DNA from: Solirubrobacter pauli
GTDB taxonomy: Bacteria > Actinomycetota > Thermoleophilia > Solirubrobacterales > Solirubrobacteraceae
Assembly: GCF_003633755.1 (NCBI RefSeq)
Contig: NZ_RBIL01000001.1
Location: 3,829,426 to 3,893,425 of the forward strand
Length of the DNA stretch: 64,000 nt
Direction of reading: 5' to 3'
Part shown: positions 38,864 through 41,276 of the stretch, in pieces
Numbering within the stretch: position 1 is the first letter of the stretch
How the letters are laid out: each line of letters starts with the position of its first letter
Program-made: the position numbers and the translations under genes
Notes under the pieces: model-generated
What the model was told of the DNA's origin: nothing
The model's database searches: none
The model's input: only the letters and a program-made list of their open reading frames with translations

Positions 38864-38872
38864 TGCTAGAAT
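38864..38872 (+). promoter_or_regulatory. Extended -10 promoter directly before disA
   Basis: TGCTAGAAT (38864-38872) combines an extended TGn with TAGAAT. Counting 7 nt on gives a start site at the GTG of disA (38879), so the mRNA would be leaderless, which is common in Actinobacteria. No Shine-Dalgarno is visible between. No good -35 is present, as expected for an extended -10. Confidence 0.5.
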
Positions 38873-38878
38873 TGCTTC

Positions 38879-39994
38879 GTGATGCAGCCGCGATCAGGGG
38901 AAGAGCTCAATGAGCTCGAAGCGCGGCAAGAGCCCCGGTTGGTGAAGGCCCTTGAGATGGTCGCACCCGGCACGGCGGTGCGCGAAGGGATCGACAACAT
39001 CGTCCACGCGCGTACCGGCGGACTGCTCGTCATCGGTGATCCGGACGAGCTGGCGTTCTTGTTCTCAGGCGGTATCCGGCTGGATATCGACTACACCCCT
39101 GCGCTCGTCTACCAGCTCGCGAAGATGGACGGCGCGATCGCGCTGAACGCCAACGCGACGAAGATCGCCTGGTGCAACGTGCAGCTGATGCCCGACCCGA
39201 CGATCCTCACGTCGGAGACCGGCACGCGCCACCGCACCGCCGAGCGCATCTCGAAGCAGACGGACGCGCTCGTGATCGCCGTCTCCCAGCGGCGTGACGT
39301 CGTCTCGCTCTACGTCGACGGCGCGAAGTACATCCTCGAGGAGATCCCCGCGGTGCTCGCCAAGGCCAACCAGGCGCTGGCGACGCTGGACAAGTACCGC
39401 ACCCGCCTGGATCAGGTCTCCACCCGCCTCACCGCGCTCGAGTTCGAGGGCGGCGTCACGCTCCACGACGTGCTGACCGTGCTGCAGCGCGCGGAGCTCG
39501 TCACGCGCATGGCGGTCGAGATCGAGCGCTACATCGTGGAGCTCGGCACCGAAGGCCGCCTCATCGAGATGCAGCTCGAGGAGACGATGGTCGGCGTCGC
39601 CGGCGACAAGGCCGCGCTGCTGCACGACTACCTGGCCGACCCGGTGGAGGACGCCTTCGCGATGGCCCTCGACGGCATCTCGCGCCTGCCCCACCAAGAC
39701 TTGCTCGACTTCGGTCGGCTCGCCGAGCTGCTCGGCTACGACCGCAAGGTCAACACGTTGGACTATCCCGTCTCGCCCCGCGGGTACCGCATCCTCGGCC
39801 GCATACCGAGGCTGCCGAAGCTCGTGGTGCAGAACATCGTTCGCGAGTTCCGAGGGCTTGACGAGATCCTGGCCGCCACCGACCCCGAGCTGGAGTCGGT
39901 GGAGGGCGTCGGTGAAATCCGGGCGAAGGACATCCGCGAGGGTCTTCGCCGTCTTCAGGAGATCAACCTCGTGGACCGGTACTTGCAAACCTGA
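38879..39994 (+). CDS. disA: Diadenylate cyclase / DNA integrity scanning protein DisA
   Basis: A 371-aa octamer-forming enzyme that makes c-di-AMP from two ATP and stops when bound to branched DNA. The DAC domain has DGAIALNANATKIAWCNVQL (DGA) and GTRHRTAERISKQTDALVIA (RHR) active-site motifs. A helical linker and a C-terminal RuvA-like helix-hairpin-helix domain (ESVEGVGEIRAKDIREGLRR) follow. GTG 38879 or ATG 38882 starts; the first fits a leaderless mRNA. It lies between radA and carD as in other Actinobacteria. Its TGA is the only stop separating it in frame from carD. Confidence 0.96.
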   Translation: MMQPRSGEELNELEARQEPRLVKALEMVAPGTAVREGIDNIVHARTGGLLVIGDPDELAFLFSGGIRLDIDYTPALVYQLAKMDGAIALNANATKIAWCNVQLMPDPTILTSETGTRHRTAERISKQTDALVIAVSQRRDVVSLYVDGAKYILEEIPAVLAKANQALATLDKYRTRLDQVSTRLTALEFEGGVTLHDVLTVLQRAELVTRMAVEIERYIVELGTEGRLIEMQLEETMVGVAGDKAALLHDYLADPVEDAFAMALDGISRLPHQDLLDFGRLAELLGYDRKVNTLDYPVSPRGYRILGRIPRLPKLVVQNIVREFRGLDEILAATDPELESVEGVGEIRAKDIREGLRRLQEINLVDRYLQT

Positions 39995-40030
39995 ACTCAG
40001 CAAGCGGTCCGGCAGCCGGACCACAGCGTT

Positions 40031-40038
40031 GAAGGAGG
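40031..40038 (+). promoter_or_regulatory. Perfect Shine-Dalgarno that fixes the carD start at ATT
   Basis: GAAGGAGG lies at 40031-40038, 7 nt before ATT 40046. No ATG, GTG, TTG or CTG occurs in frame between the disA stop and the GTG at 40127, which is inside the conserved fold. The ribosome site therefore points to ATT as initiator. Confidence 0.7.
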
Positions 40039-40045
40039 AACTCTC

Positions 40046-40627
40046 ATTTCCGATACGGCTATTGAGCTCGAAGATCTCGACATCGAGCGCGAAATCGTCA
40101 ACATCGAGTTCGAGATCGGCGACAACGTGGTCTACCCGCATCATGGGGCCGGCCAGGTAGTCAAGAAGGAGGAGAAGAACATCCTCGGCGAGGTGCGCGA
40201 GTACCTCACGATCAAGATCCTCCACAACGACATGACCGTCATGGTCCCGTGTGCGAACGCCGGCAAGGCCGGTCTGCGCCGCGTGATCGACGAGGAGACC
40301 GTCAAGGCGGTCCTCGGCGTTCTCGCCGCTGACGTGTCCGAGATGCCGAAGAACTGGAACCGGCGTTTCAAGCACAACCGCGACAAGATCAAGACGGGCG
40401 ACATCTACGAGCTGGCCGAGGTCGTTCGCAACCTCGCCGTCCGTGAGCAGGACAAGGGCCTTTCCACCGGCGAGAAGCAGATGTACACGCGCGCCAAGAA
40501 GATCCTGGCCTCGGAGATGATGTACGCGCTGGAGAAGACCGAGGAAGAGGCCGAGGCCTACCTCGACGAGATCCTCCTGCGCACGGCTGACGAGCTCGCC
40601 GCCGCGGCTGCGGTTTCGGCTGAGTAG
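40046..40627 (+). CDS. carD: CarD-family transcription regulator with non-canonical ATT start
   Basis: About 193 aa. CarD binds the RNA polymerase beta subunit and stabilises the open complex at rRNA and many other promoters; it is essential in mycobacteria. The RID/Tudor-like domain is FEIGDNVVYPHHGAGQVVKK ... LTIKILHNDMTVMVPCANAG. The C-terminal DNA-binding helices contain WNRRFKHNRDKIKTGDIYEL and GLSTGEKQMYTRAKKILASE. The family always has FxxGDxVVYPHHG near its N-terminus, so GTG 40127 would delete the first strand. A perfect ribosome site precedes ATT 40046, giving (M)SDTAIELEDLD, an acidic leader. Same reading frame as disA. Confidence 0.9.
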   Translation: MSDTAIELEDLDIEREIVNIEFEIGDNVVYPHHGAGQVVKKEEKNILGEVREYLTIKILHNDMTVMVPCANAGKAGLRRVIDEETVKAVLGVLAADVSEMPKNWNRRFKHNRDKIKTGDIYELAEVVRNLAVREQDKGLSTGEKQMYTRAKKILASEMMYALEKTEEEAEAYLDEILLRTADELAAAAAVSAE

Positions 40628-40643
40628 TCACACCCTCGCGCTC

Positions 40644-41276
40644 TTGGTGGCCGCGGGCTCAGGCTCGCGGCTCGGAGCCGCGGTACCCAAGGCGTTCGTG
40701 CCGGTCGCCGGACGCCCGATGATCGAGTGGTCGGTGGACGCGTTGCGTGCCGCCGGCATCGAGGAGATCGTGGTCGCGCTGCCCGAGGGCGGCGTCGCGC
40801 CCGCCGGCTGCCTCGGCGTCCGCGGCGGGGCGACCCGCTCGGAGTCCGTGCGCGCCGCGCTGGACGCTGCGGCCTCGTCCGGAGACGTCGTGGTGCACGA
40901 CGCCGCCCGGCCCTTGGTGGAGCCGTCGCTGTTCACCCGCGTGGTCGAGGCTCTGGCGGAAGCCGACTGCGCGATCGCCGCGGCCCGCGTGACGGACACG
41001 ATCAAGGAGGCCGACGGCGACGTCGTCGTCCGCACGCATGACCGCTCACGGCTGTGGGCGATCCAGACGCCGCAGGCCTTCCGGCGCGCGGCGCTCGAGG
41101 CGGCCCTGAACGTCGACGCGTCCGTGCTCGCGCAGGCCACGGACGACGCGTCCCTGGTCGAGCAGGCGGGCGGCACCGTGCGGGTCGTCGAAGCCTCGCC
41201 CGGCAACTTCAAGGTGACCACGCCGCACGACCTCCAGGTGGCCGAGCTGCTCCTCATGGAACGCGTGCGATCCTGA
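40644..41276 (+). CDS. ispD: 2-C-methyl-D-erythritol 4-phosphate cytidylyltransferase
   Basis: IspD (210 aa from TTG 40644) makes CDP-methylerythritol in the MEP isoprenoid pathway. Signatures are VAAGSGSRLGAAVPKAFVPV, VVVHDAARPLVEPSLF, TDTIKEAD, WAIQTPQAFR and TTPHDLQVAELLL. The start is uncertain. TTG 40644 begins inside the first beta strand, since LALLVAAGSG is expected. The in-frame CTG at 40620, overlapping the end of carD, would restore it. No ATG or GTG is available earlier, and no ribosome site is visible, so translation is probably coupled to carD. Confidence 0.9.
   Translation: MVAAGSGSRLGAAVPKAFVPVAGRPMIEWSVDALRAAGIEEIVVALPEGGVAPAGCLGVRGGATRSESVRAALDAAASSGDVVVHDAARPLVEPSLFTRVVEALAEADCAIAAARVTDTIKEADGDVVVRTHDRSRLWAIQTPQAFRRAALEAALNVDASVLAQATDDASLVEQAGGTVRVVEASPGNFKVTTPHDLQVAELLLMERVRS

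What the first reader, a model, noticed from the sequence alone, without database searches (positions are those of the whole stretch)
39992..40130. carD lacks any canonical start codon; perfect Shine-Dalgarno points to ATT
From the disA stop to GTG 40127 the carD frame contains no ATG, GTG, TTG or CTG. GTG 40127 lies inside the conserved FEIGDNVVYPHHG strand, so it cannot be the true start. GAAGGAGG (40031-40038) sits 7 nt before ATT 40046, giving (M)SDTAIELEDLD. AUU initiation is very rare and in infC it is used for autoregulation through IF3. For a global RNA polymerase regulator this could be a translation control.
Basis: partly seen in the sequence, partly recalled or inferred. Interest (0 to 1): 0.8.

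Follow-up and report, generated by a model that had tools for sequence, protein, structure and literature searches.

The report
Conserved AUU start codon in carD
In a whole order of soil actinobacteria, the gene for the RNA-polymerase regulator CarD starts with the very unusual codon AUU (or AUC) instead of AUG, and this has been kept across nearly all 48 genera examined, which points to deliberately weak, probably regulated, protein synthesis.

Summary
The carD frame of the window (39995-40627) has no ATG, GTG, TTG or CTG before GTG 40127, which lies inside the conserved core. A perfect Shine-Dalgarno (SD) sequence, GAAGGAGG, sits 7 nt before ATT 40046. It is not a sequencing error: in 167 genomes (48 genera) of the order, the SD-linked codon is ATT in 117, ATC in 40, CTG in 2 and ATG in 8. 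GTG and TTG never occur. Seven of the ATG cases are one genus, nested inside the AUU clade, with ATG at exactly the homologous place. That natural revertant identifies the start site. Protein-type divergence begins at the ATT and is absent upstream. Internal Ile codons of the same gene are 92% ATC, so the ATT preference at the start is specific. infC, a PHP-domain gene and disA in the same genomes use canonical starts; sister orders start carD with a canonical codon beside the core. The kind is known (infC, pcnB, sigR, ccpN), but I found no report for carD. That AUU lowers CarD synthesis, and that IF3 controls it, is inferred from precedent and not shown. Side finding: infC in sister families appears to start with GTC or ATA.

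The parts
40046..40048 (+). ATT start codon of carD
   Evidence: SD-linked, conserved as ATT/ATC in 157 of 167 genomes, ATG in genus g19 at the homologous place
40031..40038 (+). Shine-Dalgarno GAAGGAGG, 7 nt before the ATT
   Evidence: AGGAGG 6/6 or 5/6 in 138 of 140 genomes; normal 16S anti-SD in the own genome
40046..40627 (+). carD coding sequence, 193 codons plus stop
   Evidence: Pfam RID and CarD_C domains over cut-off
40049..40114 (+). clade-specific acidic N-terminal extension of CarD opened by the ATT
   Evidence: coding-type divergence starts here; lacking in sister orders
40127..40129 (+). first canonical start-like codon (GTG), inside the invariant VVYPHHG motif; not the start
38882..39994 (+). 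disA, upstream gene; ends 51 nt before the ATT
40006..40022 (+). small hairpin GGTCCGG-CAG-CCGGACC between the disA stop and the SD; genus-level only
   Evidence: region z-score -0.77, not significant

Best explanation
carD in this order is translated from a genuine non-canonical start codon, AUU (AUC in some genera), positioned by a near-perfect SD and read by the ordinary initiator tRNA as fMet. Because the third base of the codon does not pair with the CAU anticodon, initiation should be inefficient and subject to rejection by IF3, so CarD is made at a low rate that depends on IF3 and on initiation conditions. Shown here: the codon, its conservation, the SD, the onset of translation at that codon, and the exclusion of other starts. 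Inferred from precedent: low efficiency, dependence on IF3, and the purpose, which I take to be keeping the dose of a global RNA-polymerase factor low and linked to translational state. My confidence is about 0.95 that this is the start codon, about 0.75 that it lowers CarD synthesis under selection, and about 0.4 that IF3 level is a physiological input.
For: Conservation: 159 of 167 genomes and 47 of 48 genera have ATT/ATC/CTG. Natural revertant: genus g19 (7/7) has AGGAGG..ATG-(ACT/CCC)-GA. where relatives have AGGAGG..ATT/ATC-(C/T/A)C.-GA.; on the carD tree it nests beside ATT genus g21. Translation onset: divergence by codon position is flat upstream (.60/.61/.62) and coding-like from the ATT on (.136/.124/.303). 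Codon specificity: start ATT:ATC is 99:39, other Ile codons of the same stretches are 74:965, Fisher p 1.7e-63. Gene specificity: infC 30/30, a PHP-domain gene 51/51, and every complete disA locus are canonical in the same order. Only one tRNA with an initiator-type anticodon arm was found, with CAT. IF3 keeps the residues equivalent to E. coli Y70, Y75 and R99 (residue roles from memory). Precedent: Streptomyces sigR GTC is repressed by IF3 (PMC5472188); S. aureus AUU/AUA starts give about 10% of AUG and are conserved with extended SDs (PMC13009471); CarD level is controlled translationally and by Clp in mycobacteria (PMC8820732).
Against: No expression, proteomic or ribosome-profiling data. 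One genus and one further genome use ATG, so the weak start is not indispensable. The strong SD might largely offset the weak codon. Most of the named relatives are metagenome-assembled. Start calls in about ten genomes needed hand inspection.
Confidence: 0.75

Rival explanations
1. AUU is the start but without regulatory meaning: a strong SD compensates the weak codon, expression is set normally, and the codon drifts between ATT and ATC as a frozen historical state.
For: SD is 5/6 or 6/6 in 138 of 140 genomes; one genus reverted to ATG without evident loss of carD.
Against: About 19 ATT/ATC switches against 2 changes involving ATG on the carD tree (rough), although ATT or ATC to ATG is a single substitution; third base prefers T against the Ile codon bias of the same gene.
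Confidence: 0.18
2. Start-codon selection is relaxed throughout these bacteria, so near-cognate starts are common and carD is just one case.
For: ispD in some genera lacks an evident canonical start; infC in sister families seems to start with GTC or ATA.
Against: infC 30/30, PHP gene 51/51 and all complete disA loci in the same order are canonical; IF3 looks normal.
Confidence: 0.05
3. Translation starts elsewhere: at an upstream or downstream codon, or through a frameshift from disA or another frame.
For: Some genomes have a canonical codon upstream or within the extension.
Against: No such codon is conserved; none exists in the window; disA stop to start gaps fall in all three frames (48/40/35); coding-type divergence begins at the ATT; genus g19 has ATG exactly there.
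Confidence: 0.02
4. Sequencing or assembly error, or a broken carD.
For: None found.
Against: The same codon in all seven genomes of the genus and in 47 genera; intact reading frame.
Confidence: 0.002

Closest known systems
Streptomyces sigR GTC start, repressed by IF3 (Feeney et al. 2017, PMC5472188)
   Same: Actinobacterial global transcription regulator; non-canonical start with a very strong SD; conserved within the clade; a nearby canonical codon misleads annotation
   Different: GTC, not AUU/AUC; reported conserved in one genus, not an order; IF3 repression shown by experiment there, not here; sigR also has an ATG-started longer isoform
infC with AUU in E. coli and ATC in Streptomyces (as described in PMC5472188)
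   Same: Same codons AUU/AUC, discrimination by IF3 expected
   Different: infC feeds back on its own product; carD does not encode an initiation factor, and in this order infC itself has ATG/GTG/TTG
E. coli pcnB AUU start (Binns & Masters 2002; reference seen in PMC13009471)
   Same: AUU start that limits translation of the gene
   Different: pcnB is poly(A) polymerase; that paper itself was not read here
S. aureus / B. subtilis ccpN AUA and S. aureus cvfC1 AUU (PMC13009471)
   Same: Non-canonical start of a transcription regulator conserved between distant species, with extended SD; about 10% of AUG efficiency measured
   Different: Firmicutes; AUA in ccpN; efficiency and medium dependence measured there, unknown for carD
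Mycobacterial CarD controlled by antisense RNA AscarD and Clp (PMC8820732)
   Same: CarD abundance under translational and post-translational control
   Different: Different device; no unusual start codon is involved there

Membership tests
Genes with a non-canonical, IF3-discriminated start codon (infC/pcnB/sigR/ccpN kind) | Start codon other than ATG/GTG/TTG at the SD-linked position, with no canonical alternative | tested here: met
   for the window; for relatives
Genes with a non-canonical, IF3-discriminated start codon (infC/pcnB/sigR/ccpN kind) | Conserved in relatives | tested here: met
   159 of 167 genomes, 47 of 48 genera
Genes with a non-canonical, IF3-discriminated start codon (infC/pcnB/sigR/ccpN kind) | Strong or extended SD | tested here: met
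   anti-SD of the 16S rRNA normal
Genes with a non-canonical, IF3-discriminated start codon (infC/pcnB/sigR/ccpN kind) | Initiation efficiency below that of AUG in the same context | not testable with these tools
   needs reporter fusions
Genes with a non-canonical, IF3-discriminated start codon (infC/pcnB/sigR/ccpN kind) | Output responds to IF3 level or to IF3 fidelity mutants | not testable with these tools
   needs genetics; IF3 itself looks normal
Autoregulated infC | The product is IF3 | tested here: not met
   the product is CarD; infC of the order has a canonical start
CarD/CdnL RNA-polymerase regulators | RID (RNA-polymerase-interaction) domain plus CarD C-terminal domain, stand-alone and not Mfd | tested here: met
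   PF02559 57 bits and PF21095 118 bits, both over cut-off; the other RID match in the genome lies in a 1107-aa frame, taken to be Mfd/TRCF
CarD/CdnL RNA-polymerase regulators | Stabilises open complexes and activates rRNA promoters | not tested
   known for mycobacteria (PMC8820732), assumed here

The most novel reading that the evidence does not exclude
An order-wide circuit in which initiation fidelity (IF3 relative to free 30S subunits, or initiation conditions) sets CarD synthesis through its AUU/AUC start, coupling ribosome status to rRNA transcription. It would have been gained together with an acidic N-terminal extension of CarD, and secondarily abandoned in one genus that reverted to ATG.
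Probability: 0.3. Interest if true: 0.8.

Novelty: new member of a known kind. Interest (0 to 1): 0.62.

Why it matters
Only a handful of bacterial genes are known to use AUU/AUC-type starts, and this one is conserved across an order in a gene for a global RNA-polymerase factor. If it is attenuating, it links the fidelity of translation initiation to global transcription. It also comes with a natural control (one ATG genus), so the function of a weak start can be tested comparatively. In practice, gene finders restricted to ATG/GTG/TTG cannot call this start, and would truncate CarD inside the RID domain or misplace its start.

Tried and rejected
Sequencing error: rejected, seen in 47 genera. 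Frameshift or fusion with disA: rejected, the gap falls in all three frames. General start sloppiness: rejected as the main cause by infC, PHP-gene and disA controls. Special initiator tRNA: none found. Regulatory RNA at the start: no Rfam match; the hairpin region 39995-40095 folds no better than shuffles (z -0.77), and the hairpin is missing where the gap is short. A simple swap of the weak start from infC to carD: not clean, because sister families with canonical infC also have canonical carD. My own interim claim 'never ATG' was wrong: a wider sample found 8 ATG genomes. Literature searches for a carD, CdnL or Solirubrobacter non-canonical start found nothing relevant; subscription journals are largely not held. 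The carD tree rests on about 75-160 residues per row, so counts of start-codon switches (22 in the order) are rough.

Full report
OBSERVATION. disA ends with TGA 39992-39994. The next frame is open from 39995 to TAG 40625-40627 and encodes CarD: PF02559 RID and PF21095 CarD_C are both over their cut-offs. The upstream gene is DisA and the downstream gene IspD. Up to GTG 40127 the frame holds no ATG, GTG, TTG or CTG. GTG 40127 is the first V of the invariant VVYPHHG motif. GAAGGAGG 40031-40038 is followed by 7 nt and ATT 40046-40048. The own genome's 16S rRNA ends with the normal anti-SD ...GGATCACCTCCTTTCT.

WHERE IT COMES FROM. The window lies in contig 1 of a 7.1-Mb genome. Named relatives are Conexibacter and Solirubrobacteraceae/Solirubrobacterales genomes.

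CONSERVATION. I read the carD start region in 140 genomes of the order. The SD-linked in-frame codon is ATT in 99, ATC in 39 and CTG in 2 (the two CTG genomes have identical start regions). The SD matches AGGAGG 6/6 in 99 and 5/6 in 39. Looking without regard to frame at the nucleotides 4-9 nt after the best SD, ATT (97) and ATC (41) occur only in the carD frame, and ATG/GTG/TTG occur in no frame. Because these were the better-scoring matches, I then added 27 more divergent genomes: 18 ATT, 1 ATC and 8 ATG. Total: 167 genomes in 48 genera, ATT 117, ATC 40, CTG 2, ATG 8, GTG/TTG 0.

THE EXCEPTION CONFIRMS THE SITE. All 7 genomes of genus g19 have ATG at the homologous place, e.g. cccaggagggaccacATGactgagacc against caaggaggacgaccATCactgaactg (g22) and gaaggaggaactctcATTtccgatacg (window). 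In the carD tree g19 is monophyletic (support 97), lies beside the ATT genus g21 (support 91), and sits inside family f1, so ATG is most simply derived. The tree needs 2 changes to or from ATG and about 19 between ATT and ATC. This is a short-protein tree, so these counts are rough. The eighth ATG genome (G290) has a different, weak-SD leader.

TRANSLATION BEGINS THERE. Within genera, divergence per codon position is .60/.61/.62 upstream of the SD.136/.124/.303 between the ATT and the core, and .065/.043/.260 in the core. The coding signature therefore starts with the ATT. The segment it opens (22-65 codons including the start) is acidic (mean 9.6 D/E, 0.6 K/R). In-frame stops lie within 21 nt upstream of the start in 23 genomes. 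The gap from the disA stop to the start is 10-128 nt and falls in all three frames, excluding a fixed fusion or frameshift. At the start ATT outnumbers ATC 99:39, while the other Ile codons of the same stretches are 74 ATT, 965 ATC and 13 ATA (Fisher p 1.7e-63), so the codon does not behave like an ordinary Ile codon.

SPECIFICITY. In the same order infC starts with ATG, GTG or TTG in 30 of 30 loci, the PHP-domain gene two genes downstream of carD in 51 of 51, and disA in every locus with a complete 5' end. The carD-like context AAGGAGG-N4-8-ATTNCCGA occurs once in the whole genome. One tRNA with an initiator-type anticodon arm was found, with CAT. IF3 keeps the residues equivalent to E. coli Y70, Y75 and R99 (their role is from memory).

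SISTER LINEAGES. In the 30 class genomes outside the order that were read, carD starts mostly with TTG or GTG (ATG in one) at -9 to -15 from the core and lacks the extension; in one f11 genome the canonical candidates lie further out, at -18 to -33. Of 58 further named loci, 56 have a canonical start near the core; the two that do not show ATC and ATT starts of the order's type. The extension and the non-canonical start thus appear together on the branch leading to this order.

MECHANISM. [quoted passage not shown] S. aureus AUU and AUA starts give about 10% of AUG, and one is medium-dependent (PMC13009471). CarD activates rRNA transcription in mycobacteria, and its amount is cut under starvation by antisense RNA and Clp (PMC8820732). 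The most economical reading is that Solirubrobacterales limit CarD by a weak start codon. The rarity of the one-base reversion to ATG argues for selection, but the g19 genus shows it is not absolute. Whether IF3 amount is a real signal is open; it is notable that infC is not itself non-canonical here. No step from codon to protein level has been shown by experiment.

NOVELTY. The kind is known; the gene, the clade, and the depth of conservation (an order, with one genus-level reversion) appear new within the literature searched. The library lacks most subscription journals.

SIDE FINDING. infC in family f5 of the same class shows GGAGGTG followed 6-7 nt later by GTC, with an in-frame stop two codons before the GTC in two genomes. 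In family f11 the codon at the SD-linked place is ATA. PMC5472188 called sigR the first documented GTC start, so infC-GTC would be worth a separate look.

Noticed in passing
L314, L316, L317, L319, L325 (infC of family f5, same class): infC appears to start with GTC behind GGAGGTG; in L314 and L317 an in-frame TAG two codons earlier excludes upstream starts. This resembles Streptomyces sigR.
   Followed up: partly
L310, L311, L312, L313 (infC of family f11, same class): infC appears to start with ATA behind GGAGGTG, as reported for S. aureus infC.
   Followed up: partly
window 40620-40646; L004-L007; L019, L138, L141; L047, L049: ispD has no evident canonical start in most genomes of the window's genus (candidate CTG 40620 just before the carD stop; TTG 40644 only in the window's own genome), and the position homologous to its ATG/GTG reads GTA in genus g18 and in L047 and L049.
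   Followed up: partly
window 38868-38884 and disA of relatives: disA looks leaderless: a TAGAAT/TAAAAT-like -10 element lies about 6-9 nt before its ATG/GTG in many genomes.
   Followed up: no
window 40006-40022: GGTCCGG-CAG-CCGGACC hairpin between the disA stop and the carD SD, kept with changes in the genus (L003-L009) but missing where the gap is short (e.g. L016, L038).
   Followed up: partly
window 40049-40114; L029, L180, L185: Clade-specific acidic N-terminal extension of CarD; in genus g2 it is much longer and very rich in D/E. Function unknown.
   Followed up: partly
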